Shown here piece after piece: positions 11,778 through 58,234 of a stretch of 64,000 nucleotides of DNA. Location of the stretch: contig CP002084.1 of assembly GCA_000143165.1 (NCBI GenBank), positions 1,580,001-1,644,000 of the forward strand, written 5' to 3'. The notes below the pieces were generated by a model. That model was not told where the DNA came from. It was given only the letters and a program-made list of their open reading frames with translations, and did not search any database. Position 1 is the stretch's first letter. Each line of letters starts with the position of its first letter. The position numbers and the translations under genes were made by a program. Source of the stretch: Dehalogenimonas lykanthroporepellens BL-DC-9. Lineage in GTDB: Bacteria; Chloroflexota; Dehalococcoidia; Dehalococcoidales; Dehalococcoidaceae.

Positions 11778-11779
11778 AA

Positions 11780-14302: not shown

Positions 14303-14323
14303 GGTTATCACGTATCCTTGATG

Positions 14324-17300
14324 TCATCGTGCCTTGACCTCATTGATGATTCCCTGCAGGTCTGCGCTGCTCAAGTCCCGGGGCTGCCACTCAGTCGTCC
14401 TCGTCACACGGCCGCCACGGCCAACCTTCTCAACCTCCACTTCATGCCAGAGTTGGTCGTCAAGATCATGAGCGATGGCGTAACTCCGATCCTTATGGCT
14501 GGCGCGGACGACGCGATCCGGCCAGATGGAAAGAGCCAGGTGCGCCCAGTCGTAATCACCGGCTTCGAGTTTTTCCCAGGTATCTTTGAGGCGGGCTTTC
14601 CATTGGCGATGCTGAAAGAGGTTCCACAAAGGCGCAGCGGTGATCTGCACGCCATCGTTGAGATTGGGCTTCCAGAACCTGGCGATCCGTAACAGTTCGT
14701 CACGGAAATCTTTCAGCTCCAGCTCAAGATCGCTTAAGCGTTCGAGTTCTTTTTCCTCGGCGGATGACCGGTTGGATTTACTGCGCAAATTGGTTGCATC
14801 GTCGGATACCTCTTTGAGTTTCGAGTCGACGAAATCGTTCACGCAGGTATACAGCGTCTGATCAGTCAGACGGTGATAGTAAAGCCACAGTGTGTAAGAA
14901 CCTGATGGGGTTGAAATTGGCCAGTAGATTGGGGCATAGCGGCGGCTTTTTGAATACACGCCCAAGTGATCGATAAAAAGGCCTGATGACTTCCGGATAT
15001 AGTCTTGAAGAGAGCGTGCTCCAACGATACTGGATATCTCGGCTTCAACACTCTCGTATTGATCCCCGAAGATCAGCTCAAATACAGATCTACTTCGATT
15101 GACAATGTCCCATGCATTGGCAGGGTCATCGACCAAAATCCCATTCCATGAAACCTGAACAGGGTATTTACCATCCGGAATAGTCGCTCCCCCGATTGCT
15201 CCATCCTTGGGCAGAGTATTGGCGTCCGGCCGGGCACGGAGCCATTCCTCGCTGACGACACAACCCGACTGAGCTGGAAGACCGTCCGGACCAACCAACA
15301 TTCCGGGAGGACAAACCGGCAAGGGATCAAAGGGGGCGGGCAATTTCGGGGCAAGAGAAGGATCAATGGCAATACGAACATCCCAGCGGCCGAACGTAAC
15401 ACCAACAACGTACATCAAAAGTCCAACGGCTTTTGCCTCGGGCGTTTCAGAAATGAGTTCAACATTCAGCTCCTGATCATCCTCATTTGACTCATCATGA
15501 GAGTCTTCGGATTCATCGTCTTCCGAACGTCCTCGGATTGAAACCGCTTCACGGATATCTCGTTCCAGTTCTACAAGCTGGTCCGGATTGAGGCCGAAAG
15601 CCTCTGCTATTCTATTTTCCAAACCCCGGCCAAAAAGCGAATACAGATCCCAGGCTGTTTCCCCGCCCTCTCCCGAATGAATCCAGGCCGGAAGTAAAAA
15701 CTCCTGATACGGCTCATAGCGCTGAACCACGGCACGGCGTTTGTTCACTTCAGCATCAACATGATCTTTGATAGTCGCCAACGTTTCTTGGGGGAATTCG
15801 CACACGGGCAGTCCTTGGACCATGCTGGCTTGGAATTTCGGCCGAGCAAACATTTCCCCACTAAATCTCGCAACGGCACTCCCCACATTGGAGGCGCAGA
15901 TACCAAGCACGGCATACTCCTCACCGTCGTCTGGGAATATCTGTGCCCTGCCTGCCGTGGGCATGACACCTGATGGAACCAAGTAAGGAACCAGTCGCGT
16001 TGAGCGAAGCATGTAGCTGAAGCCTGGTTTGAAATAATACTCTTCGTTTTGTGGACGAGATCTGACTTTGCCTTTTGAATCGGTAAAATTTTTCAGCTCT
16101 TTTCCGTCATTTTCCCAATTGACTACCAATGTGATTGGGCTGAACCAAGGAGCTGCCATGTCGGTTTTTGAAAATGGTACCCAATGACCAACATTTCTCA
16201 GTTGACTGAGGCACTGGTACCTTATGTCCAGACTTGGGTTATTCAACTGTGGCAGGCGTGGAACGATAGCTCCGCTTGGAACTTCCCAGAGAAGGCGAAG
16301 ATGACGAAGATCTTCTCCCGTTTGAAGGCCGACACGTATCGCCGCTTTATTTCCCTCAATGCAAGGATGGGTACCGACGGTTTCAATGGTGGATTTCGAA
16401 ACCCAGTAGGCGTATGGATTTCCTGTTAACGATTCAAAATGTCTTGGATTTATAACAAATGTTCTGTCAGACGTCTCACCGCAGGAGCACTCTTCCTTAA
16501 GCTCACGCAGGAGCTCACCTTTTTCGGCATCGACAAGCAACCGGAAAAATAATGATTCTGGTTCGCCGCGTCGATGTTTGGTAATGACATAGATCGCCGT
16601 CTCCACCATGGCCTCAAGTACGCCATCACCTAAATCTGCCAGCAGGCGAACATGACCGTCTTTACCAAGAACCTCAGTTCTCAAGTTGTCAAATGAACCC
16701 AAGAAGAATGGGGTTCGACTTGAGATTGCACCGACTCGCCCTTGACTCGTACTGAGTTGCAAGGTGCGTTCGATGAAATTGGCGAGGACATCACCCTTGG
16801 ACTTTGGGTAACGGTCGTCGATATATTCTTTCGATTCGCGACTTGATGCTCCAAAAGGCGGGTTCATCAGGATTGCATCGTACCGATTACGACACAGGTC
16901 GATGAAGGCGAATCCCCTGGCCGTGTCTTTCGCGAACAATCTGCGGCGCGTTGCGTGGCCGTTTTCCGCAAGTTCCGCATACTTTTTTAGAGCATCCAGG
17001 ATTCGATCTTCTGCCTGCTCCCAAAACCGTTTGTCGGTAATCCCCGTGACATCAAACCTCAACTCCTGTTGCTTCGGCTGCGAGGCTTCCATCCCGGGGA
17101 AAAGGAGCTGCTGCTCAGGCTTTGGACCTTTTTGCCACTGCTGCACGGCTTCTGCGACAGCACCTTTGATCTCTTCCTCGATTTTGAGTAGAGACCCTGC
17201 TTCACCCGCAAGCGCCATACGCTCAAAGACCATTGTTACAAGCTGACCCAATACCCGAGGTTGAAGCTGATCGGTAAACTCGTTCAGCATATCGGCCTCA

Positions 17301-18637
17301 CCGGGCATGGGCTCGGCGCAAACTATGTTGGAGCGTTGAATCTGGGGCCTTTCCAGAGCTTTGACGTTCCGCGTCTGCCAAGACCTCTGTGCCCGCAACC
17401 AGAGTGACAGCCCGGCGATCTGGACTGCGCGAGGATCGATATCGATGCCGTGAATGTTGCGCTCAATGATCAGGCGCGGCACATCACGCAGAAAGGCGTC
17501 CTTGTCACTGTAGGATACATGGAGTGGCTTGAGCCCCTCGGTCCGAATAAAACCGTCTGCACCAAGCTGCGCTTCAATATCCCAGGCATCGTCGTAAATA
17601 CGCTCAAAAAGATCGAAGGCATAAAGACCAAAATGCATCGAGCCACAGGCAGGATCGAGCATCTTGATGTCACGGGGATCTTTAAGTTTATGGTGAGGTA
17701 TGTAAACCGGTTGTTTGAGAAGTTCCTCTTGGGAAAGCCCCTCGACAGTTTTATCCTGCTTTGGTACCTGCTCACCTTCGGCCAAATAAATCTCTGTGGG
17801 ACGGCATACCAGGTAGTGGCAAAAGTCCTTAAGGGCGGTGTTCCCCTGGGTCATTTCGTACCATAAGCGGCCGAGAGTATTATCCGTCAGAAACTCAACC
17901 ACATAGCGTGGCGTAAAAAACTGATTGCGTACAGCCATCTCCCTTGAGTCTCTGGGAGACCTCGACGCTTTGCGCATGGCATCACGCTCAGCCTTCTGAT
18001 TGAAATACTGGTAAATCCAGCCAATGGTCTCGTCTTCGGCCCAGAGCGGATCGATATCCGGGTGGTTGATCTCCTGCAGCACATTGAGTAGTGCCGCCTC
18101 GCGGGGGAACAGACGTCCTTGGGGGCTGAACCGGTCAAAAAGAACCGGCAGATCGACGGCAAACTCGTCAAAAACACTGAAGATAAACTGACGGTAACAG
18201 GCTCCGGTTTCTCCCAGTGCGGTGCCTGCCAGGCGCTGATAGAGCTGGAACCCTTTGGACTGGTATCCCTTGGCGATGGCCTCGATTAGCAGCCCCCTCG
18301 CTTCGGCCATTCGCAGGGCACAGAGACGATTGAGAATGGTGAAGGCCTGTTCCCGGACGATGCGGTCAAGAATATCCTGACGGGCCTTTTTGGCCTTGGA
18401 TAGTGTTCCGGTATCGGCGGCAGCAAGATAGTGCTCCATGGTGTCGCGGAGCAGGTGGGCCGTCTCGCGACGTGCATCGTCCAGATGTTCAAGCCGGGCC
18501 AGGTCGGTCACGTCACCGCTATTGGGATCGAGCCCGTAGTCGTTCTGCAGTTGGCGGGTGAATTCCTCCGTCAACAACAGACGGGTTTTACCGACAAAGT
18601 CGGCAAGCCGTTTTCGGGTTGTTTGATCAAAGGCCAT
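14324..18637 (-). CDS. pglX: BREX adenine-specific DNA methyltransferase PglX
   Basis: A 1,437-residue N6-adenine DNA methyltransferase, the specificity and modification subunit of BREX. The SAM-binding motif I reads DPACGSMHFG (328-337), and motif IV is NPPFG at about residue 600, matching gamma-type N6-adenine enzymes. The long C-terminal half should hold the target-recognition region. An acidic stretch (DESEDSHDESNEDDQ) falls near residue 1075. In BREX, PglX methylates a non-palindromic site on the host chromosome, allowing self/non-self discrimination. The gene starts 5 bp after brxC. It is at the long end of the family's usual 1,200-1,300 residues. No frameshift is visible, although phase-variable pglX genes are known. 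Confidence 0.93.
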   Translation of the reverse strand: MAFDQTTRKRLADFVGKTRLLLTEEFTRQLQNDYGLDPNSGDVTDLARLEHLDDARRETAHLLRDTMEHYLAAADTGTLSKAKKARQDILDRIVREQAFTILNRLCALRMAEARGLLIEAIAKGYQSKGFQLYQRLAGTALGETGACYRQFIFSVFDEFAVDLPVLFDRFSPQGRLFPREAALLNVLQEINHPDIDPLWAEDETIGWIYQYFNQKAERDAMRKASRSPRDSREMAVRNQFFTPRYVVEFLTDNTLGRLWYEMTQGNTALKDFCHYLVCRPTEIYLAEGEQVPKQDKTVEGLSQEELLKQPVYIPHHKLKDPRDIKMLDPACGSMHFGLYAFDLFERIYDDAWDIEAQLGADGFIRTEGLKPLHVSYSDKDAFLRDVPRLIIERNIHGIDIDPRAVQIAGLSLWLRAQRSWQTRNVKALERPQIQRSNIVCAEPMPGEADMLNEFTDQLQPRVLGQLVTMVFERMALAGEAGSLLKIEEEIKGAVAEAVQQWQKGPKPEQQLLFPGMEASQPKQQELRFDVTGITDKRFWEQAEDRILDALKKYAELAENGHATRRRLFAKDTARGFAFIDLCRNRYDAILMNPPFGASSRESKEYIDDRYPKSKGDVLANFIERTLQLSTSQGRVGAISSRTPFFLGSFDNLRTEVLGKDGHVRLLADLGDGVLEAMVETAIYVITKHRRGEPESLFFRLLVDAEKGELLRELKEECSCGETSDRTFVINPRHFESLTGNPYAYWVSKSTIETVGTHPCIEGNKAAIRVGLQTGEDLRHLRLLWEVPSGAIVPRLPQLNNPSLDIRYQCLSQLRNVGHWVPFSKTDMAAPWFSPITLVVNWENDGKELKNFTDSKGKVRSRPQNEEYYFKPGFSYMLRSTRLVPYLVPSGVMPTAGRAQIFPDDGEEYAVLGICASNVGSAVARFSGEMFARPKFQASMVQGLPVCEFPQETLATIKDHVDAEVNKRRAVVQRYEPYQEFLLPAWIHSGEGGETAWDLYSLFGRGLENRIAEAFGLNPDQLVELERDIREAVSIRGRSEDDESEDSHDESNEDDQELNVELISETPEAKAVGLLMYVVGVTFGRWDVRIAIDPSLAPKLPAPFDPLPVCPPGMLVGPDGLPAQSGCVVSEEWLRARPDANTLPKDGAIGGATIPDGKYPVQVSWNGILVDDPANAWDIVNRSRSVFELIFGDQYESVEAEISSIVGARSLQDYIRKSSGLFIDHLGVYSKSRRYAPIYWPISTPSGSYTLWLYYHRLTDQTLYTCVNDFVDSKLKEVSDDATNLRSKSNRSSAEEKELERLSDLELELKDFRDELLRIARFWKPNLNDGVQITAAPLWNLFQHRQWKARLKDTWEKLEAGDYDWAHLALSIWPDRVVRASHKDRSYAIAHDLDDQLWHEVEVEKVGRGGRVTRTTEWQPRDLSSADLQGIINEVKAR

Positions 18638-18642
18638 GGCTG

Positions 18643-21600
18643 CTAACTCTCAATCTTGATGGTGACTTCGATATCGCTGTAGACTGCCAGCTCGGCTTTG
18701 AGGGCCTGAAGAGAACGGATCAGCTCTTCCAGATCGGCAGCACTACTAATGGTCGCAGGGATGTTCACACTTCGGGAGAGCTTGGTTTGCCCGGCCTTTT
18801 TGGCCTCTTTGCGCTCTTCTTCAAGCCGGGACATCTGCCGTTCGTGGGCGGTTTTGATGATTCCGTCGCGAATGTCGTCAATCTGCGAGCGAACAACGAA
18901 TGACTGATTGAGCAGCTTTTTGATTCCGGCAAGGTCCTCGGTGCTTTCAACGGTGATGCCGTCAATTTGATTAAGAACCTGCGACTGTTCATCGCGACCC
19001 AATTCTGACCACTGAGGTAAACGCTGAAGCTCATCCGCCGCATCTTTAATGGCGGTTCGCTGTGTTTTTGCCATTTCAATGGCGGCATCCCGTGCACACC
19101 CCTTGATTGCCGTAAGAGAGGTGCTCAGATCCGCTAAGTGGGAATGAAAATCGTCTCGCGAAAGGCGCTCTCCCACCTGGGTCAGTTCATCGGCTAAATC
19201 CTGGCGGAGCTTCCCGGGAACTCCCGTATCGGGCAGAGCTTCGATGTCGCGACGATGTTGCTGAAGCTCCCGCACGGTTTGCTCCAGGCCGTTTTTTAAC
19301 GCCCGGTCGACCTCGGTGGCCCACTTCAACCCGTCATAAAGAGGTGACTCTTCACTGCCCAACCGTTGCGGTGCATCAGACGCGTCCGTCAACAGTACAT
19401 CCGCCAGGTCCTGGTTAAGAGAACGGATCACATCGCCACCCGGCAGGCCCAGGGCATCCAATTTTTCCGCCAGTGGTCCGAACTGATGCTGAAACTTGGG
19501 AAATTGCTTCGTCGCGGTCTTGCTGATTTCGTCCTCTAAAGGAATAACCGTATCGCCAACCAGGTCGGTCAGGCGCGTTGCGGCCCGGGCCAGGACTTCG
19601 TTTGATGGCCGCTCGTCGCGCAGTGATACGCCAACGACCTTAAACGAATTGTTGGTACGGAGCGCATCGATGGCCTGTTGGCCATTGACCGTCACCTCTC
19701 GCCCGGAGACCTTTATTTTGATTTCTCCGGCAACCAGCATGGCGGCGACGAGGTAGCGCAAGGTATCCTGCGACCAGCCGAACGGCGCATCAGTAAAGTG
19801 CTCGAGCATTCGCTTTCCTTCGACCGTGCCCAGACGGTCAATGTAATCGCGAATGCTGACTACTGCCTTATGGTCGGTTTTGATATGTGGCGTCCCTCCG
19901 GAAACCTGAACGAGCCCCAAAGGATCAACCGCTGAACTGACGGCTTTGAGGTTTCCAACCCGGAGAAACTTTTCGGCCAATGCCGTCTCCGCCCGGACAG
20001 GAGCTTCGCCATAGCGGTCAAAAACTTGCTCGGCGACATTGCTTAGATGCTTTTTGGTGGCATCGATCACATCCGGATTGACACTATCGACGGCTGTCGT
20101 TTGACCACGAAAAACAAATGACCCCTGCGACAAGCAACGTTTCAGCAAGTGTTCAAGCTCGCCGGTCAACTTGGTGGCACGGTCGGTCTGGGCCGCGCAG
20201 TACTCCTTGACTTCGGCGTCCGGGTCGTTTCGATAGCGCTGATGGATTTCTCGGCACCGATAAATTTCAGCGATCTTGTCATCGATATCCGAAGAGGTTC
20301 TACCAAGCAGGTAGATGGTGTTTTGGGCACTGCGCTGACGGGATTCTTCAATAAGCCGGGTTCGGGCCGTGTCATAGTCTTGGGGGGCGACAAACTCCAC
20401 CAGTGTCTGGATGGTTTCTCGCTCGCCTGCAAGAGGTGACACCATCGAACCCACCATGGCCTTGAGCCCGGTGGTAACGGCCAGTGATCCGTGCAGTCGC
20501 GTCGAAGGTAGAGGGCTGAAGGCGTCACGGAGCGCTTCGTTATGAATGCGCCGCGTCTCGATAGACCGCAAAGGGATCTGGGCTCGCTCCTGGTCGATAT
20601 CGTTCAACTTCTCACTGAAGAAGCAGAGGTTTCCATCCTTTTCTCCGAACGGCACGATGGCATCGTTGATAAGTTCTGCAATGGCGGCATCCACCTTGTC
20701 GCGTTGCGAGGGTGCATCGATACCGGCATGCATGAGGCTGGCGACATTTTGGGCCGTTACCGGCATGTTGCCGAGCACCTGCAGCACAGCCACTGTCTTG
20801 GCGACTTCCAGATGGAGTTGCGAACCGGTGAAGCGGATTTTAACCTTCCCGACCGCCTTATGAACGGATGGAAAAGCGCGACGAATGTCTTTTTCAAGGG
20901 CATCGTAGAGCGTGACCGTGGTCGCCAGCCAACCAACGGGCCTATTGGCAACCGGTTCCTGATCGTCCGGGCCTTCAACCAGAATATCCTGAATGACCTT
21001 GATGGCTGAGCGCAGGCCGATACCGCCGGTGGACTTGGCCAGCGCACCCAAGAGGTGCAACAGGATGTCGAAATGGGCAGGCAAGAATGGATACAGGTTG
21101 ACGAAGGTGGTCTTGTCGAAATCTGAGTCGTAATAGCGGGCGTCCTGCAGTTTGGTATTGTGGCGCAATGCCTGGCCAAACTTATCGAAAAGCCCTTCGA
21201 GTTCCTGCTGACCGCCCGGGGATTTGCCGAGAAGACGACGATAGCAAATTTCCTTGATATCGCTGGATTCAAGGTCGATTTGAATGGGAAAGCGGTCTTT
21301 GAGTTTGTACAGCTCGGGAGAGTTGAGGGCCGCACGCGGATCGTCCTCAGTCAGGGTCTGCTGAGCCGTACCGATGATCCACGCATTCCCTTCGCCAATG
21401 GCTTTCAGATTCTTGGCCAGGCCGTCAAGGTTGAGAATGAGATTTTGCCGTGAACCGACGTACTGACCAACCTCGTCGATGATGAACACAACAAATTCCT
21501 TGCCCGTTGTCTCGCGAACAATATCGAGCATTTCCTTGACGCGCTCATTCTCAAACCTTACGAAATCGGTCGTTTCCGTACTGAAAGCCGTCGATGATTT

Positions 21601-22269
21601 AAAAAGCTGCGGGTACATCTCATGGGCAATCTCAGGAATCAGGCTGTCGATCACCAGCGGATCGTTTTGCACTTCCTTCCACGGCGTCTCTAATTCATTC
21701 TGAATGCGGTTCGTGAACTCTTCATAACGACTGTCCTTCTGAAGTCGCCGCTCAAATGCCGCAACCTTGAGATTTCGGGAATAACCAGCCCACTGCAACA
21801 CCTTGTAATAAAGGACGGTCGATACGTCCTCCATGGTGGCCCCGGCCAGCATTTCACTGGCCAGATCAAGAAGCACGACAGCTGCAGAATGCCTGCTGGC
21901 CAGCGCCGCCAATTGCGCCCGGGTCTGAGACTTATTGAGCCTGTCCTGGAGATACTTGAGAAACGGCGTGCCCTCAATCGCTACGCTTTCGTCAAGGGCA
22001 AGCCCCAGGTATTTCGTGAATGAACTTTTACCCGAGCCATAGAACCCTGAGACCCAAACACCGACCTCATTCTCGCCACCCATCTCCATTGCCGCCTGCA
22101 TGCGTGTCAGCAGCCGTTCGAACTGCTCTTCGATGCTATCGGTGACGATGTATTCGGTGATTTCAGACTTAAGCCGCGCCTCTTGAGACGCGCTATAAGT
22201 GATGACTTTTTCGATTGTCCGGTAGATATCCTTGGCCGGATCAAACAGTTCTTTAATTTGAATTGACAT
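18643..22269 (-). CDS. brxC: BREX ATPase BrxC
   Basis: A 1,208-residue P-loop ATPase, the largest non-methyltransferase core component of BREX. Walker A is GFYGSGKSSF (75-84), and a Walker B-like segment FVVFIIDEVGQY lies near residue 260, followed by a sensor-like IIGTAQQTL. The C-terminal half is largely helical with likely coiled coils (for example LEEERKEAKKAGQ near the end). BrxC is required for both methylation and phage exclusion. A GGAGGGAA site precedes the ATG at 22269. It follows brxB by 16 bp and pglX by 5 bp, so translation is probably coupled. Length matches the family. Confidence 0.93.
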   Translation of the reverse strand: MSIQIKELFDPAKDIYRTIEKVITYSASQEARLKSEITEYIVTDSIEEQFERLLTRMQAAMEMGGENEVGVWVSGFYGSGKSSFTKYLGLALDESVAIEGTPFLKYLQDRLNKSQTRAQLAALASRHSAAVVLLDLASEMLAGATMEDVSTVLYYKVLQWAGYSRNLKVAAFERRLQKDSRYEEFTNRIQNELETPWKEVQNDPLVIDSLIPEIAHEMYPQLFKSSTAFSTETTDFVRFENERVKEMLDIVRETTGKEFVVFIIDEVGQYVGSRQNLILNLDGLAKNLKAIGEGNAWIIGTAQQTLTEDDPRAALNSPELYKLKDRFPIQIDLESSDIKEICYRRLLGKSPGGQQELEGLFDKFGQALRHNTKLQDARYYDSDFDKTTFVNLYPFLPAHFDILLHLLGALAKSTGGIGLRSAIKVIQDILVEGPDDQEPVANRPVGWLATTVTLYDALEKDIRRAFPSVHKAVGKVKIRFTGSQLHLEVAKTVAVLQVLGNMPVTAQNVASLMHAGIDAPSQRDKVDAAIAELINDAIVPFGEKDGNLCFFSEKLNDIDQERAQIPLRSIETRRIHNEALRDAFSPLPSTRLHGSLAVTTGLKAMVGSMVSPLAGERETIQTLVEFVAPQDYDTARTRLIEESRQRSAQNTIYLLGRTSSDIDDKIAEIYRCREIHQRYRNDPDAEVKEYCAAQTDRATKLTGELEHLLKRCLSQGSFVFRGQTTAVDSVNPDVIDATKKHLSNVAEQVFDRYGEAPVRAETALAEKFLRVGNLKAVSSAVDPLGLVQVSGGTPHIKTDHKAVVSIRDYIDRLGTVEGKRMLEHFTDAPFGWSQDTLRYLVAAMLVAGEIKIKVSGREVTVNGQQAIDALRTNNSFKVVGVSLRDERPSNEVLARAATRLTDLVGDTVIPLEDEISKTATKQFPKFQHQFGPLAEKLDALGLPGGDVIRSLNQDLADVLLTDASDAPQRLGSEESPLYDGLKWATEVDRALKNGLEQTVRELQQHRRDIEALPDTGVPGKLRQDLADELTQVGERLSRDDFHSHLADLSTSLTAIKGCARDAAIEMAKTQRTAIKDAADELQRLPQWSELGRDEQSQVLNQIDGITVESTEDLAGIKKLLNQSFVVRSQIDDIRDGIIKTAHERQMSRLEEERKEAKKAGQTKLSRSVNIPATISSAADLEELIRSLQALKAELAVYSDIEVTIKIES

Positions 22270-51529: not shown

Positions 51530-51601
51530 AGGTAGAAAGAGAACCAAAAATGTGAATTTTTGACTTTCTTCTTGTCGTACATACATACGAATAAAGGGAG
51601 T

Positions 51602-51661
51602 ATGAACAAAGCAACCAAGGGAGTCCAAAATGTGTTACGTAAAACCAGACCTGAGATAGGA
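51602..51661 (+). pseudogene. 5' fragment of a small plus-strand gene cut by the IS3 element
   Basis: An ATG with AAGGGAG upstream begins MNKATKGVQNVLRKTRPEIG, then the frame runs into the IS3 left end at 51662. Twenty codons remain. The gene faces away from the surrounding tail genes, which suggests a cargo (moron-like) gene. It may or may not be the first part of the fragment at 52907, because the two halves do not join to a recognisable protein. Confidence 0.45.
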
Positions 51662-51713
51662 TGGATAAAACGGACACCAAAGTCAGGTAAAATAGAGAGA
51701 CGGAGGTGTCAGG

Positions 51714-52031
51714 ATGGAAAGGATTCCACACGGGAAGTATACGAGGGAGTTCAGGCTGGAAGCGGTGAAGCTGGTGACAGAGGATAAATTGTCTGTGGCG
51801 GAAGCTGCCAGGCGGCTGGCACTGCCGTCAAACACCTTGGACAACTGGCTCAGGAAACACAGAGCCGGCAAGCTTGAAGAAGTGGGCAAGTCATACCGGC
51901 CGCTGACAGAAGTAGAGATGGAGCTGGCCCGGGTAAAGAAGGAAAATGCCGAACTCAAAATGGAGCGGGAAATATTAAAAAAAGCAGCCGCGTACTTTGC
52001 CAGGGAGTCGCTGCCCGGTACGCGGCGATGA
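51714..52031 (+). CDS. IS3-family OrfA (HTH and leucine zipper protein)
   Basis: A 105-residue OrfA of the transposase. The HTH part (EFRLEAVKLVTEDKLSVAEAARRLALPSNTLDNWLRKH) is the transposase_8 domain, and a leucine-zipper-like stretch follows (MELARVKKENAELKMEREILKKAAAYFAR). It overlaps OrfB by 4 bp. Near its end an A-rich slippery run at TTA AAA AAA GCA is in phase for a -1 shift, and the -1 frame is open from there into OrfB, so the functional transposase is probably the OrfAB fusion. Confidence 0.93.
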   Translation: MERIPHGKYTREFRLEAVKLVTEDKLSVAEAARRLALPSNTLDNWLRKHRAGKLEEVGKSYRPLTEVEMELARVKKENAELKMEREILKKAAAYFARESLPGTRR

Positions 52032-52888
52032 AAGAACTGCGGCTCAAATATCCAGTCCCTATTCTCCGGCGAATGCTTGGTGTCTCCGGTAGCGGCTTTT
52101 ATGCCTGGATGGATAGGCCTTTATCGAAGCGGGGTCAGGAGGAAGCGCGGCTTGAGTTGGAGATCAAGGCAGCGGATAAGCGGACGCGCCAGACCTATGG
52201 GCCGGAGCGACTACAGCGGGATTTGGCAGCGCACGGCGTGAAGGTGGGTATTTGCCGTATCAAGCGTATCCGGAAAAAGCTGGGGATACGTTGCAAACAG
52301 AAGAGTAAGTTCAAGGTTACCACGGATTCCAGGCACAGGTTGCCGGTAGCCGGAAACCTGTTGGCGCAGAAGTTTGTGGCCTCCAGGCCGAATGATGTAT
52401 GGCTCACCGATATCACCTATATTTCCACCGATGAAGGTTGGCTGTATCTGGCAGGCCACAAGGACCTGTGGAATGGCGAAATTGTCGGATATGCCATGGG
52501 TAAGCGCTTGACCAGAAACCTGGTCAATGAGTCTTTGCTTCGGGCGGTGGCCGCTAAACATCCGGCCGAGGGGCTGTTGCACCACTCTGACCGGGGTAGC
52601 CAGTATTGCTCCCTTGAGTACCGGCGACTACTGGAACGATTTGGCTTGAGAGCTTCCATGAGCCGGAAAGGGAACTGCTACGACAACGCACCTATGGAGA
52701 GCTTCTGGGGAACGCTAAAACAGGAACTGGTGAATCATCGGCGCTATAGAACCAGACAAGAAGCCATCCGGGAGATCACGGAGTATATCGAAATCTTCTA
52801 CAACCGGCAACGCCGGCAAGCCAGGCTGGGATTCTTGTCGCCGGCGGCTTATGCTCAACAATTCTACGCAGGACTGGTGGCGGCATGA
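52028..52888 (+). CDS. IS3-family OrfB transposase (DDE integrase core)
   Basis: A 286-residue rve-type transposase. After an N-terminal HTH_21-like region (TRQTYGPERLQRDLAAHGVKVG) comes the DDE core: DVWLTDITYISTDEGW (first Asp), LLHHSDRGSQYCSLEYRRLL (second Asp) and GNCYDNAPMESFWGTLKQEL (Glu of MESFW). ATGs overlap OrfA by 4 bp (ATGA). It seems intact and may be produced as an OrfAB frameshift fusion. Confidence 0.95.
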   Translation: MKELRLKYPVPILRRMLGVSGSGFYAWMDRPLSKRGQEEARLELEIKAADKRTRQTYGPERLQRDLAAHGVKVGICRIKRIRKKLGIRCKQKSKFKVTTDSRHRLPVAGNLLAQKFVASRPNDVWLTDITYISTDEGWLYLAGHKDLWNGEIVGYAMGKRLTRNLVNESLLRAVAAKHPAEGLLHHSDRGSQYCSLEYRRLLERFGLRASMSRKGNCYDNAPMESFWGTLKQELVNHRRYRTRQEAIREITEYIEIFYNRQRRQARLGFLSPAAYAQQFYAGLVAA

Positions 52889-52906
52889 AAGGTTTGGTGT
52901 CCGAAT

Positions 52907-53185
52907 TTGACATCCGACCTCAACCTTGTCGTGTCCCCTAAGAGCTTGGTGTCAAATTTGAAGGTCATTTATGACGGTGAGGTAAACAGTTGGGCATTGG
53001 TTGAAATGGAATGGGGTGGCGCAGAAGCCGTTAGGCTGCGCTGGAATGATGGTTCTGAAGATCAAAGATTCCCGGGAATTGGAAATCCTCAATCCCGAGG
53101 CTTGCCTACCTGGTTTATTCTTCTCGAAGAAATTGCGGAAGTTGTTATCAGTATGCTCAAGGTAAACAAGAAGATATCAGAGTGA
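52907..53185 (+). pseudogene. Conserved small protein, 5' part rewritten by the IS3 end
   Basis: A frame of 92 codons. Only the part from about 52955 looks native: VIYDGEVNSWALVEMEWGG, AEAVRLRWNDGSEDQRFPG, and GNPQSRGLPTWFILLEEI resemble a small family I recall with the pattern RWN..GNPxSRGxPTWF in proteobacteria. The first about 16 codons arise from the IS end, so the original start is lost or unclear. Its last codons overlap the minus-strand connector gene end by 9 bp. Confidence 0.5.
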
Positions 53186-53668
53186 CATACTTGAGCGGAT
53201 CGCCTTGCGATAGTTCTCGATGATCTGCTCGCGGTACTTTTCCATGGTGGGGTGCAGAAAGGGTCGGGGCGGGATGACGATCACCGCGCCGGTGGGGTGC
53301 TGGATGGTGGCTCCGTATTCCATTACCGCACCGATGTTCACCAGGTCGTCGCCGTCCTTGTTGACCGTGCCGCGCAGTAGCCCCACGAAAGCCCGGTCGG
53401 TGAGGAGGCGCTGAGTGATGGAATTGACCAGAAAGCCGGTGTCGATCAGGACCTTGCTGGAGCCCTTGCGCGTGATGGTTCTCTCGGCCAGCTTGACGAA
53501 CGCCTTGCCGCCCGGTGCCTGGGAGCGGATACCTCGTTTGATCTCGCGGACGAGGAATAGGGCGTTCTTGATGGTCGCCTGACGGATCGCCAGGGCGAGC
53601 CGGGCTCCGGGATTAGCGACCAGCTTCGCCTTCGCTTTGTCCCAATCTCCGAAGCGCTTAACCCCCAT
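53177..53668 (-). CDS. Phage virion morphogenesis / HK97-gp10-like connector protein
   Basis: A 163-residue protein (MGVKRFGDWDKAKAKLVANPG). ARLALAIRQATIKNALFLVREIKRGIRSQAPGG and VLIDTGFLVNSITQRLL with GAVIVIPPRPFLHPTMEKYREQIIENYRKA match phage virion morphogenesis (HK97 gp10-like) proteins, the tail-head connector stage. It is the last head-side gene before the tail block. Immediately upstream of its ATG begins foreign AT-rich sequence instead of the neighbouring connector gene. A remnant start with the same six first residues sits 4.2 kb upstream at 57882. Confidence 0.85.
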   Translation of the reverse strand: MGVKRFGDWDKAKAKLVANPGARLALAIRQATIKNALFLVREIKRGIRSQAPGGKAFVKLAERTITRKGSSKVLIDTGFLVNSITQRLLTDRAFVGLLRGTVNKDGDDLVNIGAVMEYGATIQHPTGAVIVIPPRPFLHPTMEKYREQIIENYRKAIRSSMSL

Positions 53669-53739
53669 AAACTTTTCTCATTTTCAAAAGAATTTCTTTT
53701 GGATTTCAGCCAAGGCAAAAACGGTTGCGGGCATGAACA

Positions 53740-54444
53740 TCATGTCACAGCTTCCAGTGGCAGTACAAGCTGACGACCTGTTTGGAGGATCTTCCCAGAG
53801 TCTTTTAGCCGTTTCATTACACGAGTAATACTGACGCGATGCGCTCCGATCAGAAAACCCAAATCTTCATGCGTTAACGGAAACTGAATAACATAACCCT
53901 CTTCTTTTTTCTCGCCATGCTCCCGGGCGACATTGAGCAGGACACTGTAAAGTCTTTCTTCCAAGTGAGTTTGGGACATGGCCCCGACCCGATCAGTTAA
54001 CTGAGCGATACGACCACTCAAGTTCTTGATGACCTGGAGACCGATATTGGGATATTCAAGAACCAATTTTTCAAAACGATCTTTTGTAAAGCTGCACACC
54101 AATGTCTCCTCCATACTCCACGCACTCACAGGATAGTTGAAATCATCGTTAAATATATACTCCCCCAAAAAATCGCCAGGCTTCCTTATATCCAGAGTTA
54201 ATTCCGTACCATCCTCTAAGAGTTTGCTCAATTTTACGCGACCGGCTTTGATCAACGAAATCTGTTTCGCTGTATCGCCTTGCATAAAAACTGATTGGCC
54301 TGCTTGATATTTTTTACGCAACGCCTCTCGAACGACCGCTTCCATTTCCGCCTGGCGCAGTCCATCAAAAACCCAAAGCTGCCCGATGCATATTTGCGAC
54401 CATTCACTACCCTTCGGTTTTAGCTTTTCACATAGGCAACTCAT
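53740..54444 (-). CDS. Crp/Fnr-family transcriptional regulator
   Basis: A 234-residue regulator. The cyclic-nucleotide-binding beta-roll is clear at about 40-130 (KYQAGQSVFMQGDTAKQISLIKAGRVKL, GTELTLDIRKPGDFLGEYIF), with a long dimerisation helix and a C-terminal HTH of the Crp type (FPLTHEDLGFLIGAHRVSITRVMKRLKDSG). Three N-terminal cysteines (SCLCEKL, then CIGQ) might bind a cofactor such as Fe-S or heme. ATG 54444 follows GGAGG. It probably controls the redox genes upstream in the same direction (55128-57617). Such proteins sense redox, NO or CO; which one cannot be told here. Confidence 0.85.
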   Translation of the reverse strand: MSCLCEKLKPKGSEWSQICIGQLWVFDGLRQAEMEAVVREALRKKYQAGQSVFMQGDTAKQISLIKAGRVKLSKLLEDGTELTLDIRKPGDFLGEYIFNDDFNYPVSAWSMEETLVCSFTKDRFEKLVLEYPNIGLQVIKNLSGRIAQLTDRVGAMSQTHLEERLYSVLLNVAREHGEKKEEGYVIQFPLTHEDLGFLIGAHRVSITRVMKRLKDSGKILQTGRQLVLPLEAVT

Positions 54445-54546
54445 AGGAACTGCCTCCTTCCAGCAATTTTCTAATTCCCTGGGCTGTCGTGGCAAAAGTA
54501 GTCCATTTCAGATAGCCGAAGGAACCCTGCCATTTGTAGGTTAGTT

Positions 54547-55128
54547 TCATTCCAGCAACCCATTTAACATATTATCAAAATGATCCAAGTTCAAGTTCAT
54601 GAATTCAACGGGGACCTGTACCAAGTCGAAAAATTCGAGTACTTCATCCTCTGTCAAGGAATTAACTCCGGAATCCAGCACAAGAATCCGTTCATATCTT
54701 CCAAGATTCATACGAAAATCCACCTCATTCCATCCGAAGAATCGTTTCATATTTGCAGGCCAAACTCTCACCCATGTAGGTGTCATAAGCATCGTGTTAT
54801 TTTGTTCCAATTCTATTGATTTCTCTTCTCCGAGGAAGGCTGACAAACAGTTTTTTGTAGGTATAATATGCGCGCCCTTACTGTCGGCTATGGACTTAAT
54901 TTGTGGAAGGCACCCATTACCGTACAATATCTTGACATCCACCTTTCCAATATTTTTTGCAATATCGATAGCAGATAATAGCTCACTTTCAAGCAATTTA
55001 AGATCGGAATGAAGTCCGGCGTCAAGCCATATCACTTTAAAGCCTGCCAAACCACGCTTTCTTTCCAATAGGAAATTGATCTCATCCTTGAAAATCCCAC
55101 ATGCTATTAAAACCTTGTCCGCTTTCAT
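54547..55128 (-). CDS. DUF1638 domain protein
   Basis: A 193-residue protein, KADKVLIACGIFKDEINFLLER at the N-terminus and VIWLDAGLHSDLKLLESELLSAIDIAK, then VKILYGNGCLPQIKSIADS and HIIPTKNCLSAFLGEEKSIE. The spaced ACG, LH and YGxC motifs match DUF1638, a family of anaerobes with unproven function, possibly corrinoid- or methyl-transfer related. ATG 55128 is chosen over 55137 because AAAGGA is then 9 nt away. It is followed by about 100 bp before the regulator. Base use is AT-rich compared with the phage genes. Confidence 0.78.
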   Translation of the reverse strand: MKADKVLIACGIFKDEINFLLERKRGLAGFKVIWLDAGLHSDLKLLESELLSAIDIAKNIGKVDVKILYGNGCLPQIKSIADSKGAHIIPTKNCLSAFLGEEKSIELEQNNTMLMTPTWVRVWPANMKRFFGWNEVDFRMNLGRYERILVLDSGVNSLTEDEVLEFFDLVQVPVEFMNLNLDHFDNMLNGLLE

Positions 55129-55219
55129 AGACCACATCCTTTAGGTTGAAACTGTTGGTACTTATTTGTATTGCGCTCCTACCTTCTCTGTACAATTATT
55201 GGTCACGGCACTTTACAAA

Positions 55220-55570
55220 TTAAAAAGTCAAAACCATGAATCCTTCCTTGAGATGTCGTGTTAAGGGTTCTCCCATATAAATAACCTGGCACCCGAGTTT
55301 TTCGAGTTTTTCAGATACTCCATACCTGTCAGCGCAGGCCTTACACGCCAACGTTTCAACACCAACCTTCTTCATTCCGACGAGTTCGGTCTGCAGTTTG
55401 AGGTCCTCTGAAAGTAGCTTCGCAGATGGTCCCCAAACTATCATTTTGACAGTGCCCCACCACCCTTTGATCATAGAATTTTTACAATACATAAATACCA
55501 TGTTCAGGGCGACGTCTGGGTCTTGTGAACTCCATACGACCACGAGGGAATCGTGAAAGTCACTTTTCAT
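55220..55570 (-). CDS. DsrE/DsrF-like family protein
   Basis: A 116-residue protein of the DsrE fold, small sulfur-relay proteins. VVVWSSQDPDVALNMVFMYCKNS and VWGPSAKLLSEDLKLQ match, and LACKACADRYGVSEKLEKLGCQVIYMGEPL has the conserved CKACA-type cysteine region of DsrE-like proteins. It lies in the cargo between a DUF1638 gene and the PNPOx-like gene. It probably acts in sulfur or redox transfer (inference). ATG 55570, with AAGGAG in TTCCTT rev-comp upstream. Confidence 0.82.
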   Translation of the reverse strand: MKSDFHDSLVVVWSSQDPDVALNMVFMYCKNSMIKGWWGTVKMIVWGPSAKLLSEDLKLQTELVGMKKVGVETLACKACADRYGVSEKLEKLGCQVIYMGEPLTRHLKEGFMVLTF

Positions 55571-55663
55571 GGGAATCGACTCCTTCCGCGTTTATAGACT
55601 CCAGAAAATGGCGGTGGACCTGGAGACAGGAGATATACCGCCCCCAGGCCACCCTCCGGACTC

Positions 55664-55689
55664 GGAAAGCATGTCACATAATGCTTTCC
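55664..55689 (-). terminator. Hairpin after the PNPOx-like gene
   Basis: GGAAAGCAT at 55664-55672 and ATGCTTTCC at 55681-55689 form a 9-bp perfect stem with an 8-nt loop, 31 bp downstream of the PNPOx-like stop. No T-run follows. It is a likely transcript end or processing site separating that gene from the DsrE gene. Confidence 0.4.
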
Positions 55690-55720
55690 ACATGACCAAT
55701 TAGTGACTATAATCAGAGCG

Positions 55721-56128
55721 TTATCCTATTTTGTTTCCTGCGTTGGGACCAGGAGACTGATCATAAATCTCTTCAACTGTGATCTTTGCCACGTATTTGG
55801 GCTCGGGGAGCGGTTTTGGCGCCTTCTTCAGTTCCTCTCTTACCTTCTCGTAAATTGGACCGCTGTCGATAAGCTCCGCTTTTCCCTTGAATTGATACCC
55901 AATGAATTTTTCATGGTCTACAAGGGTTACTGCGACCTTTGGATTGTTCCTGAGATTGTCCCTGGTTTTGAGAGAAAAGAGATCGGCAAAAATAATCGTG
56001 TTTTCGTCCAGCACCTGAATAGTGCCTTTGGGAGTGACATTGGGCATGCCCTCCTGATTAGCGGTGGCTACCCAACCCAGCTTGCCCTTTACAAATTCCT
56101 GCAATTCTTTGGAAATACTTGACGCCAT
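55721..56128 (-). CDS. Pyridoxamine 5'-phosphate oxidase-like flavin-binding protein
   Basis: A 135-residue split-barrel flavin reductase-like protein. LGWVATANQEGMPNVTPKGTIQVLDENTIIFADLFSLKTRDNLRNNPKVAVTLVD is the FMN-binding split-barrel region; KFIGYQFKGKAELIDSG follows. ATG 56128 has AGGAGG. Such proteins bind FMN or F420 and act in redox buffering. It is a single-domain family member of about 130-140 residues and fits the redox theme of the cargo. Confidence 0.83.
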   Translation of the reverse strand: MASSISKELQEFVKGKLGWVATANQEGMPNVTPKGTIQVLDENTIIFADLFSLKTRDNLRNNPKVAVTLVDHEKFIGYQFKGKAELIDSGPIYEKVREELKKAPKPLPEPKYVAKITVEEIYDQSPGPNAGNKIG

Positions 56129-56250
56129 GATTACCTCCTGTGTCATAATATGTTTTTAAAACACGAAAACGCCTATAATTCGGCCAGCAATAAGTCCTTT
56201 GTCTTTATCGTGTTTCACCTCCTTTCCGTGGGTGTGGTCACACTCCACAG

Positions 56251-56904
56251 TTACATTGCCAGTTGTCCACGCAGACGGTCAGCGATTACACGTCCGAGAT
56301 CATGTGCCTGCTGCCATGTTTCTGTTTGGTTTTCAACGTTGCTGAATTTCTCGGATGTCACGGTCGTGTCCTCACCGAATATCCAAGGAAGAGCGCTCAT
56401 GGGGCATGTCTCACCATAACCGCATACCATACATTCGGGATTGCCAACCGCTTTCAATTGGCCCAATACCTCCATCCCTTCAAGTTTAAGCGCATGAGAG
56501 ATTTGATCGGCCGCCTCATTAAGACCGGGCGCTCCACGTCCTATCCCCGTAGCGACAACAACAGCCAGTTTTCCTCTGTTAAGACCATTTTGATGACGAA
56601 GGGAGAAGAGACGTTCCAGAAAAGCTTTCGTAAAACCATCCACGCCGCCATAGGGGCTGTATCCACCGACTACGAGTGCTCCCGCGTTGAGCACCTTCTC
56701 TGCAATTGCCGGGAAATCGTCCTCAACTTTGCAGATATTGTCCTTTTTGCAACCCAAACAAGCTATGCATGGGCCGATACGTGTCTTACTTAATTTTATA
56801 AATTCTGCACTGAGGCCAGTTGCCTTCAATACCGCTTGGATCAATCGATCCGTATTGCTATTTTGGATCGGGCTTCCAGATATACCTATAATTTGTGTTC
56901 TCAT
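56251..56904 (-). CDS. Iron-sulfur flavoprotein (Isf/NADPH-FMN reductase family)
   Basis: A 217-residue flavodoxin-like protein. The flavin phosphate loop is GISGSPIQNSNTDRLI, and a compact cysteine motif CIACLGCKKDNIC (about 46-58) is the [4Fe-4S] ligand pattern of Isf from methanogens and anaerobic bacteria. GGYSPYGGVDGFTKAFLERLF forms the second flavin region. A later Cys group (CMVCGYGETC) is additional. Isf-type proteins transfer electrons and may reduce O2 or H2O2 for anaerobes. It lies 50 bp after the selenoprotein gene. Confidence 0.85.
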   Translation of the reverse strand: MRTQIIGISGSPIQNSNTDRLIQAVLKATGLSAEFIKLSKTRIGPCIACLGCKKDNICKVEDDFPAIAEKVLNAGALVVGGYSPYGGVDGFTKAFLERLFSLRHQNGLNRGKLAVVVATGIGRGAPGLNEAADQISHALKLEGMEVLGQLKAVGNPECMVCGYGETCPMSALPWIFGEDTTVTSEKFSNVENQTETWQQAHDLGRVIADRLRGQLAM

Positions 56905-56954
56905 AATCGGGACTCCTTTATTAAAATGGAATCATGTTCAATAATCGATTCAAC

Positions 56955-57617
56955 CTATCGATTACGAATTATAATCAACTCAAGCTTTTTGATGGTTTCT
57001 GACGGTTCAGGCCGTATCAGGTAGTCCACATTCACCTCTGCATCGAGAATACGCCGACTTCGATCAACAATCAGCCGTGCTGGCATGGGAAGCCGCCATA
57101 GTCCGTCTGCATTGGCTCGTTGAAGGTCCACTCCCAAAGCGGCGTAGACTTTTTGCAGACGAAGAGGTAACTCAAAAACCAAACCGAGAGATTCGGAGAG
57201 GGTAAGCCCGACATCACTGAACACCTCGTACTTAAGCCCTAATTTACGTTTTACTGCATGATTGATTGACGGCTTTTGGGGAGAAATTGCAATTAATCCA
57301 GCTCTCATCCTATTGATTTCGTCGAAAGAATCATTTAGAGCTTCCAGCTCCAAATTACAGTAAGGTCACCAAATTCCCCGGTAGAAGGTGACAACCGTAT
57401 ATTCTCGATACAAGTAACTTGCTGGTTTGACAGGCAAACTTCGGCTATTCATAAGCATCGCATCGGGAAACGTGTCACCTTTTTGTACAGTTTGCTCTAG
57501 GATGCCCGATTTACTCAATTCCTCGGTGGAGGATTGCATGATCAATCTGTAATCCTTGGGAATTCTTGCAACCGAGTTCAGCTTGTGGTCGTTTATTCTG
57601 TCTTTGAGAGTCTGCAT
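56955..57617 (-). CDS. Peroxiredoxin-like (AhpC/TSA) selenoprotein with in-frame UGA
   Basis: A 220-residue protein if the TGA at 57366-57368 is read as selenocysteine. Frames before and after join without shift: VVTFYRGIW-[TGA]-PYCNLELEAL. In the peroxiredoxin-like family this position is the peroxidatic cysteine of FYRGxWCPYC, so a stop here falls exactly at the catalytic site. The frame on both sides is well conserved in character (QKGDTFPDAMLMNSRSLPV and LRLQKVYAALGVDLQ, LPMPARLIVDRSRRI). A 9-bp hairpin with loop GGA sits 11 nt after the UGA. It would reduce peroxides. Otherwise it is a broken gene, but a single stop at the catalytic codon makes Sec more likely. ATG 57617. Confidence 0.82.
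57334..57368 (-). promoter_or_regulatory. Bacterial SECIS-like stem-loop after the UGA
   Basis: Downstream of TGA (57366-57368) come 11 nt, then TTTGGAGCT (57346-57354), a GGA loop (57343-57345) and AGCTCTAAA (57334-57342): a 9-bp stem with one G-U pair. The loop begins about 20 nt after the UGA, within the range known for bacterial SECIS elements, and has G in its first positions as SelB recognition requires. Lies within the coding frame. Confidence 0.7.
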
Positions 57618-57692
57618 AACGCCATCCTAATCAATCACCACGTGTTGGGGTCACCTTCCAATTTAAAATAACAAAGGGAATCGGGGAGTGCC

Positions 57693-57706
57693 GTAGCAAT
57701 CGCTAC
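57693..57706. promoter_or_regulatory. GTAGC-N4-GCTAC palindrome upstream of the selenoprotein gene
   Basis: The perfect inverted repeat GTAGC AATC GCTAC lies 76 bp before the start of the peroxiredoxin-like gene. It may be a regulator site, for example for the Crp/Fnr protein in the same cargo, though it lacks the classical TGTGA or TTGAT arms. A single occurrence, so low confidence. The rest of 57618-57800 shows nothing else recognisable. Confidence 0.3.
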
Positions 57707-57804
57707 AATGGAAAACTTTTCAGGGGCTGAATAGCCTAATGCAGGCACAGTTTATGAAAAAGGTTGGCATGGGGGTCGGCATGCGGGGGAATCTAAATGA
57801 CTGC

Positions 57805-57882
57805 TCAAACCAGTGCAGACAACAGATTGTTAAAAAGTAGATCGTGGATAGTGGCAAGTCCCTCGAAACGTTTAACTCCCAT
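57805..57882 (-). pseudogene. Remnant start of the connector gene (MGVKRF...)
   Basis: An ATG at 57882 begins MGVKRFEGLATIHDLL and stops after 25 codons. Its first six residues are those of the connector protein now starting at 53668 (MGVKRFGDW). The ATG overlaps the upstream connector gene by 11 bp, the normal phage layout. The three differences in the first 18 bp (GGA/GGG, AAA/AAG, CGT/CGC) are all synonymous. Sequence left of about 57860 is foreign. This marks the right edge of the cargo insertion. Confidence 0.6.
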
Positions 57883-58234
57883 GGTGGCGAACCAGTTTCA
57901 GTACCTTGTGGGTCACGACCCCGAAAAGGCGTTCCTCCACCACGGTCTGAACCCGGAAGACGTCCGCGCCGCTTTTCACCCTGTCTTCCGGTCTCACGTC
58001 CAGACCGGGGAGCCCGCAGGCCGTAGCGTCGATTTTGTTGGCGAGGTCCTCCGGAGGAGTTTCGATGAACTCGAGCGGAAAGGTCTCCAACTCGGCGAAG
58101 GATGCGTCGTCCGATCCATACAACCGCTCACCCGGTACGGCACGCAGCAACGCGGCTTCCTGTGAGCTTGCCAGGATCAGCTCTCTCACGTCCCCGGCGG
58201 CCGCAGCTTTCTCGGGACCACTAAGCAGGGTCAC
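57872..58234 (-). CDS. Phage head-closure/connector-type protein
   Basis: A 120-residue protein starting at GTG 58234 (overlap GTGA with the upstream gene). LLSGPEKAAAAGDVRELILAS and YGSDDASFAELETFPLEFIETPPEDLANKIDAT with AGADVFRVQTVVEERLFGVVTHKVLKLVRH resemble the head-closure (gp16/stopper) type by gene order and length rather than by a firm motif. Its stop overlaps the remnant start MGVKRF by 11 bp. Confidence 0.6.
   Translation of the reverse strand: MTLLSGPEKAAAAGDVRELILASSQEAALLRAVPGERLYGSDDASFAELETFPLEFIETPPEDLANKIDATACGLPGLDVRPEDRVKSGADVFRVQTVVEERLFGVVTHKVLKLVRHHGS

What the first reader, a model, noticed from the sequence alone, without database searches (positions are those of the whole stretch)
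56955..57617. Selenocysteine peroxiredoxin in a phage-borne redox cargo
One in-frame TGA falls at the peroxidatic-Cys position (RGIW-TGA-PYC) and is followed by a 9-bp stem with GGA loop about 20 nt downstream, as in bacterial SECIS elements. The downstream frame continues for 136 codons with family features. A selenoprotein inside a prophage structural operon is striking: it could protect host or phage during oxidative stress and requires a Sec-decoding host.
Basis: partly seen in the sequence, partly recalled or inferred. Interest (0 to 1): 0.8.

Follow-up and report, generated by a model that had tools for sequence, protein, structure and literature searches.

The report
Selenocysteine peroxiredoxin-like gene in prophage cargo
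A prophage in a small-genomed bacterium that looks like Dehalogenimonas carries, in a six-gene insert among its head and tail genes, a redox protein whose in-frame UGA codon is very probably read as the rare amino acid selenocysteine; the protein type is already known, but no other viral contig searched encodes it.

Summary
On the minus strand, 57617-56955 encodes a 220-residue AhpC/TSA-type protein with one in-frame TGA (codon 84) in FYRGIW-U-PYC. A 10-bp hairpin with a GGA loop follows 20 nt after the TGA and meets all four criteria of the published bacterial SECIS model. The genome has selC-selD-selA-selB about 110 kb away. All 80 fetched genome loci that share the TGA motif encode homologues. 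Close Sec forms keep the hairpin (mean MFE -9.7 kcal/mol) and Cys forms mostly do not (-2.6). A pseudogene or sequencing error is therefore very unlikely.

One correction: the Sec is not at the peroxidatic position. It aligns with the Thr/Ser of the peroxiredoxin TxxC motif, and Cys87 takes the peroxidatic column. This is the known UxxC 'Prx-like' type, not PrxU (TxxU).

The phage context is real. A 4.2-kb, GC-poor, six-gene cassette sits exactly between two phage genes, one a neck gene, of a complete-looking myovirus prophage; in all related viral loci compared those genes are adjacent. No IMG/VR contig has the Sec motif.

The protein is a known kind; the new part is its place as phage cargo. 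Sec incorporation, activity and expression are untested.

The parts
56955..57617 (-). Sec-containing Prx-like gene, 220 aa, UxxC motif (Sec84-Pro-Tyr-Cys87)
   Evidence: Translation with TGA=U; Pfam AhpC-TSA E 6.8e-16; AF2 model pLDDT 94.8 with a peroxiredoxin fold
57366..57368 (-). In-frame TGA, codon 84, predicted Sec
   Evidence: Aligns with a Cys codon in 14 Cys homologues and with TGA in 80 fetched loci
57333..57355 (-). SECIS-like hairpin: 10 bp, GGA apical loop starting 20 nt after the TGA, -10.7 kcal/mol
   Evidence: Fold; published bSECIS limits; synonymous-recoding test; pair counts against Cys control
57357..57359 (-). Cys87 codon, second residue of UxxC, in the column of the peroxidatic Cys of peroxiredoxins
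   Evidence: phmmer alignments to 2ywn and 2cx3
56251..56904 (-). Cassette gene: NADPH-dependent FMN reductase / flavodoxin-family protein
   Evidence: Pfam FMN_red E 3.6e-14; 68% identical to a Trichlorobacter lovleyi plasmid protein
55721..56146 (-). Cassette gene: pyridoxamine-phosphate-oxidase-like flavoprotein
   Evidence: Pfam PNPOx_N E 2.2e-20
55220..55570 (-). Cassette gene: weak DsrE-like match
   Evidence: Pfam DsrE 19.7 bits, below the 22.7 cut-off
54547..55137 (-). Cassette gene: DUF1638 protein
   Evidence: Pfam DUF1638 E 4.4e-23
53740..54495 (-). Cassette gene: Crp/Fnr-family regulator
   Evidence: Pfam cNMP_binding E 2.2e-18 and HTH_Crp_2; 47% identical to the Crp next to the flavodoxin gene on pGLOV01
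53669..57871 (.). Whole inserted cassette, about 4.2 kb, GC 0.41-0.48 in a phage region of 0.60-0.65
   Evidence: Composition; empty site in related phages; gene GC3 0.43-0.52 against 0.72-0.89 in phage genes
57864..57882 (-). Partial copy of the neck-gene start at the right end (ATGGGAGTTAAACGTTTCG)
   Evidence: 16 of 19 bases equal 53668-53650; read directly
53650..53668 (-). Start of the neck gene at the left end (ATGGGGGTTAAGCGCTTCG), second copy of the repeat
53177..53668 (-). Phage tail-completion/Neck1 gene flanking the cassette
   Evidence: PHROG 222 E 3.3e-28
57872..58234 (-). Phage gene (120 aa) flanking the cassette, directly upstream of the neck gene in related phages
   Evidence: tblastn conservation and gene order

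Best explanation
The gene encodes a Sec-containing member of the Prx-like (UxxC, AhpC/TSA, cd02970-type) proteins. The host's SelB-tRNASec complex reads UGA84 as Sec with the help of the hairpin right behind it. Sec84 lies at the start of the active-site helix and is the likely attacking nucleophile; Cys87 would resolve it through a selenenylsulfide, which a thioredoxin or a flavoprotein would reduce. It is the first gene of a six-gene redox cassette (with FMN reductase, PNPOx, DsrE-like, DUF1638 and Crp/Fnr genes) that was inserted between two genes of a myovirus prophage without breaking either, so it most likely acts as lysogenic cargo that adds an anaerobic redox or stress function to the host. 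Shown by computation: TGA, hairpin, Sec machinery, homologues, fold, insertion site. Inferred: Sec incorporation, chemistry, reductant, benefit. The confidence given is for the selenoprotein reading; I hold the cargo role at about 0.6.
For: Single TGA in an otherwise open 220-codon frame with the family match running across it. selA, selB and selD over their curated cut-offs and tRNA-Sec over its gathering score, clustered at 1.4699-1.4743 Mb; selD itself has an in-frame TGA. Hairpin meets published bSECIS limits. Motif search: at least 119 stretches in genome contigs, all 80 fetched are homologues, 25 of them 31-41% identical over nearly full length. Sec forms prefer GAG-CTG-x-GCT (GCT 21 of 26; Cys forms 3 of 14), mean core MFE -9.7 against -2.6. 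Paired cells 71% against 33-44% when slid, 6 pairs with two-sided change; Cys control 49% and 1 pair. AF2 pLDDT 94.8; best fold match Bcp4, Z 20.7. Empty site in every viral locus compared, g152-neck spacing 345-486 nt.
Against: No Rfam SECIS family matches; bacterial SECIS may be poorly covered there. Hairpin energy is not exceptional in a longer stretch, and some Sec relatives pair poorly with the window's own ten-pair structure. Covariation counts exceed shuffles only modestly (8 of 500 for two-sided pairs), as most of the stem is also fixed by coding. No Sec motif in any other viral contig, so no second phage supports carriage. A 2026 paper left the D. lykanthroporepellens BL-DC-9 genome out of its pangenome because of a contamination warning (PMC13390414).
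Confidence: 0.85

Rival explanations
1. The TGA is a real stop: a nonsense mutation or sequencing error in an ordinary Cys peroxiredoxin-like gene, so the gene is broken or mis-sequenced.
For: TGA differs from TGC/TGT by one base and no expression data exist. Cys relatives without TGA are common on plasmids.
Against: TGA at the same codon in 80 fetched homologues from many phyla; SECIS-like hairpin absent from most Cys forms; frame and invariant residues intact on both sides; the host has the Sec machinery.
Confidence: 0.05
2. It is a canonical Sec peroxidase (PrxU-like) with Sec as the peroxidatic residue.
For: Peroxiredoxin fold and AhpC/TSA domain.
Against: Sec84 aligns with Thr/Ser of TxxC and Cys87 with the peroxidatic Cys; NCBIfam PrxU 11.4 bits against a cut-off of 270. 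The literature separates TxxU Prx from UxxC Prx-like (PMC1088965). Peroxide reduction with Sec as the attacking residue of a UxxC pair remains possible.
Confidence: 0.15
3. The cassette is not phage cargo: a bacterial mobile module or recombination event landed in a decaying prophage by accident and never travels in phage particles.
For: No other phage contig found carries it; an IS3 element has also entered the same region (51530-53192); the FMN reductase and Crp relatives sit on a plasmid among IS elements.
Against: Neither flanking gene is broken; portal, terminase, head, sheath and baseplate genes are present, so the prophage looks complete; its sheath is up to 98% identical to that of many viral contigs.
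Confidence: 0.4

Closest known systems
Prx-like selenoproteins with UxxC (PF00578; Sargasso Sea and GOS Prx-like families; review PMC13188914)
   Same: AhpC/TSA domain, UxxC motif, Cys homologues; bacterial SECIS directly after UGA
   Different: Located in a prophage structural region within a six-gene cassette; no comparable phage copy found
cd02970 peroxiredoxin-like family selenoprotein (listed with UxxS in PMC13188914)
   Same: Annotated close homologues are called 'peroxiredoxin-like family protein'
   Different: Second residue is Cys (UPYC), not Ser; the cd02970 model was not available to score
Sec peroxiredoxin PrxU (TxxU)
   Same: Peroxiredoxin fold
   Different: Sec sits three residues earlier, on the Thr column; PrxU model far below cut-off
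SelL and SelL-related redox proteins
   Same: Weak profile match, Prx-like family
   Different: 18.1 bits against a cut-off of 120; one Sec only
tRNA-Sec genes in Basilisk-like phages (PMC6145125)
   Same: A link between a phage and selenocysteine decoding
   Different: There a tRNA gene, here a selenoprotein gene that relies on host machinery

Membership tests
Bacterial selenoprotein | In-frame UGA at a redox position that is Cys in homologues | tested here: met
Bacterial selenoprotein | bSECIS: apical loop 3-9 nt with G in its first two positions, stem 4-16 bp, 16-37 nt from UGA, MFE at most -7.5 | tested here: met
   GGA loop, 10 bp, 20 nt, -10.7 kcal/mol; limits from PMC13188914
Bacterial selenoprotein | Host has selA, selB, selC, selD | tested here: met
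Bacterial selenoprotein | Sec-encoding homologues in other organisms | tested here: met
   80 fetched loci of at least 119
Bacterial selenoprotein | Selenium incorporated in vivo | not testable with these tools
   Needs labelling or mass spectrometry
Prx-like UxxC selenoproteins | AhpC/TSA (PF00578) domain | tested here: met
   58.8 bits against a cut-off of 26
Prx-like UxxC selenoproteins | UxxC motif | tested here: met
   U84-P-Y-C87; R80, G81, W83, residue 84, P85 and C87 invariant in 26 sequences, which were chosen by a pattern that fixes most of this motif
Prx-like UxxC selenoproteins | Peroxiredoxin/thioredoxin fold | tested here: met
   AF2 pLDDT 94.8; 3hjp Z 20.7, rmsd 2.0 over 158 residues
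cd02970 (PRX_like2) | Match to the CDD model itself | not tested
   CDD is not among the libraries
PrxU (canonical Sec peroxiredoxin) | Sec in the peroxidatic column, TxxU | tested here: not met
   Sec on the Thr column; NF040737 11.4 of 270 bits
SelL | NCBIfam SelL-related model above cut-off | tested here: not met
   18.1 of 120 bits
Phage cargo (moron) | Foreign composition, absent from sister phages, flanking phage genes intact | tested here: met
Phage cargo (moron) | Own promoter and terminator | tested here: inconclusive
   Only one weak minus-strand promoter-like site (at 54495), counts near the shuffled background; a 254-bp gap precedes the gene
Phage cargo (moron) | Expressed in the lysogen, carried in particles | not testable with these tools
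   Needs RNA and virion DNA

The most novel reading that the evidence does not exclude
A temperate phage of Dehalogenimonas-like Chloroflexota carries a functional selenoprotein as lysogenic cargo, so that part of a viral genome depends on the host's selenocysteine machinery and phage can move Sec-dependent redox enzymes between anaerobes.
Probability: 0.4. Interest if true: 0.65.

Novelty: new member of a known kind. Interest (0 to 1): 0.5.

Why it matters
Selenoprotein genes are easily split by standard annotation (as here), and I found no report, in the papers searched, of one as phage cargo. If it is expressed, phage could be a route by which Sec-dependent enzymes spread, limited to hosts that already decode Sec. 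The active-site correction, Sec in the Thr column with a Cys in the peroxidatic column, also predicts testable chemistry.

Tried and rejected
Rfam search of the window and of the gene region found no SECIS family. A search of 100 relatives, mostly of the same order, found no near copy of the Sec gene, only 24-30% matches. Phage records: no homologue by tblastn or blastn. Viral contigs: no Sec motif; searches with the Prx protein, the Prx alignment and the FMN reductase found no relative. A Cys-motif pattern gave 5 viral stretches that were not followed up. None of the other cassette genes lies near the Prx in the 80 Sec loci. A second own-genome match to W-TGA-P[YF]C, at 1388258, lies in a frame full of stops, across another open frame: chance. 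Folding the protein without an alignment gave a useless model (pLDDT 30). The hairpin is also listed as terminator-like; it lies inside the coding frame with a poor T run, so I set that aside.

Full report
WHAT IS THERE. On the minus strand of 56955-57617 a 220-codon frame runs from ATG (57617) to TAG with one TGA at codon 84. The Pfam AhpC-TSA match covers residues 47-190, across the TGA (E 6.8e-16). Plain ORF listing splits it into two pieces, 56955-57353 and 57366-57617.

SECIS. The hairpin at 57355-57333 has ten pairs and a GGA loop that begins 20 nt after the TGA; MFE -10.7 kcal/mol, z -3.3 in the 40-mer but unremarkable in longer stretches. A 2026 review gives the bacterial model as loop 3-9 nt, G in its first two positions, stem 4-16 bp, spacing 16-37 nt, MFE at most -7.5 (PMC13188914); all are met. 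Because codons restrict the sequence, I tested against 1000 synonymous recodings: 0.1% fold as well.

SEC MACHINERY. The window's assembly is one contig of 1,686,510 bases. From that length and from memory I take it to be Dehalogenimonas lykanthroporepellens BL-DC-9; the tools did not name it. It holds tRNA-Sec (69.4 bits), selD (361 bits, itself with an in-frame TGA), selA (518 bits) and selB (347 bits) in one row at 1,469,900-1,474,324, outside the window. Published work reports selCDAB and a Sec formate dehydrogenase across the genus (PMC13390414) and Sec genes in D. alkenigignens (PMC4918011).

RELATIVES. A DNA pattern for [YF]RGxW-TGA-P[YF]C found 119 stretches in genome contigs, the scan stopping at its limit. 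All 80 fetched encode homologues; 25 align 31-41% identical over nearly the whole length. They come from many phyla. In a maximum-likelihood tree the window gene groups with a Malonomonas sequence (99/72) in an 11-row all-Sec group (92/85), with Cys forms interleaved elsewhere. Its own branch is long (0.88), and 100 relatives, mostly of the same order, hold no near copy, so horizontal acquisition is likely.

SEC VERSUS CYS. In 26 Sec forms the codons under the stem are GAG (23), CTG (24) and GCT (21); in 14 Cys forms GAG 6, CTG 5, GCT 3. Mean core energy is -9.7 against -2.6 kcal/mol. Pair counts on 23 Sec sequences: 70.9% of cells paired, 33-44% when slid, six pairs with a two-sided change (8 of 500 shuffles as high). 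Cys control: 49.3% paired, one such pair. The signal is real but modest, since coding fixes most of the stem. The structure was derived from the window sequence, three of the 26 Sec sequences were left out of the count, and the Cys set is small and drawn from plasmids only.

ACTIVE SITE. phmmer alignments to 2ywn and 2cx3 place residue 84 on the Thr/Ser of TxxC and Cys87 on the peroxidatic Cys. The AF2 model (26-sequence alignment, Cys in place of Sec) has pLDDT 94.8 and puts residue 84 just before the helix 85-96. Best structural matches are peroxiredoxins (3hjp Z 20.7, 158 residues, rmsd 2.0). The literature separates TxxU peroxiredoxins from UxxC Prx-like proteins (PMC1088965; PMC2398784). 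So the gene is of the second type, and Sec84 is probably the attacking residue as in thioredoxin-like proteins (inference).

PROPHAGE AND CASSETTE. The surroundings hold tail sheath, minor tail, baseplate, Neck1, major head, weak scaffold-like and methyltransferase genes, and beyond the window head morphogenesis, portal, terminase and primase genes. Six genes at 53740-57617 (Crp/Fnr, DUF1638, DsrE-like, PNPOx, FMN_red, and the Sec gene) have GC 0.40-0.49 and GC3 0.43-0.52, against 0.61-0.62 and 0.72-0.89 for four phage genes (profile). In viral contigs whose sheath is up to 98% identical and whose 152-aa gene is up to 92% identical, the flanking genes are adjacent: 345-398 nt between the 152-aa gene and the neck gene in all loci compared but one (486). 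Several loci are overlapping pieces of the same contig, so the number of independent phages is smaller than the number of rows. In the window the 120-aa and neck genes are 4.2 kb apart. The first 19 bases of the neck gene occur, with three differences, at both ends (57882-57864 and 53668-53650), so both phage genes remain whole. How the cassette entered is unknown.

WHERE THE CASSETTE COMES FROM. Its FMN reductase is 68% identical to a protein on plasmid pGLOV01 of Trichlorobacter lovleyi SZ, where a Crp/Fnr gene (47% identical) stands next to it. A Sulfurospirillum plasmid has a 45% homologue near a PNPOx gene. This suggests a module shared among anaerobes, perhaps of chlorinated habitats (inference; the habitat link is from general knowledge of these organisms).

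LIMITS. Everything is computed. Sec insertion, enzyme activity, expression and packaging are untested, and the genome I take this to be carries a published contamination warning. No other viral contig searched has the Sec motif, so phage carriage rests on one prophage. That motif scan is strict (exact [YF]RGxWUP[YF]C), and other phage selenoproteins would not have been seen by it.

Noticed in passing
window 9657-22269, minus strand: BREX-type defence genes (BrxL, PglZ, BrxC-like) lie next to the prophage in the same window.
   Followed up: no
window 51530-53192: An IS3-family element (integrase ORF 52028-52888, +) has separately entered the prophage between the 182-aa gene and the neck gene; related phages have about 12 bases there.
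   Followed up: partly
window 57693-57706: Perfect inverted repeat GTAGC-N4-GCTAC upstream of the Sec gene, the only such match in the window; a possible site for the cassette's Crp/Fnr regulator.
   Followed up: no
L303 910-2396 (Trichlorobacter lovleyi plasmid pGLOV01): Crp/Fnr gene beside a flavodoxin-family gene, 47% and 68% identical to the cassette's pair; the plasmid also carries corrinoid genes and IS elements.
   Followed up: partly
L243 and L196 (same contig): One phage contig has about 2.6 kb of extra sequence between the neck gene and the 182-aa gene, perhaps another insertion in the same region.
   Followed up: no
window 1030-2301 and 3000-4271, minus strand: Two ORFs of equal length (423 aa) 1970 bases apart; the second is a Mutator-family transposase.
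   Followed up: no
L010 (selD, G000:C1:1470042-1470968): selD itself has one in-frame TGA, a second likely selenoprotein of this genome.
   Followed up: no
window 53177-53668 and 57872-58234: The neck and 120-aa genes are closest to locus L228 (91-92% aa) while the neighbouring 152-aa and sheath genes are closest to other phages: mosaic exchange around the insertion site.
   Followed up: partly
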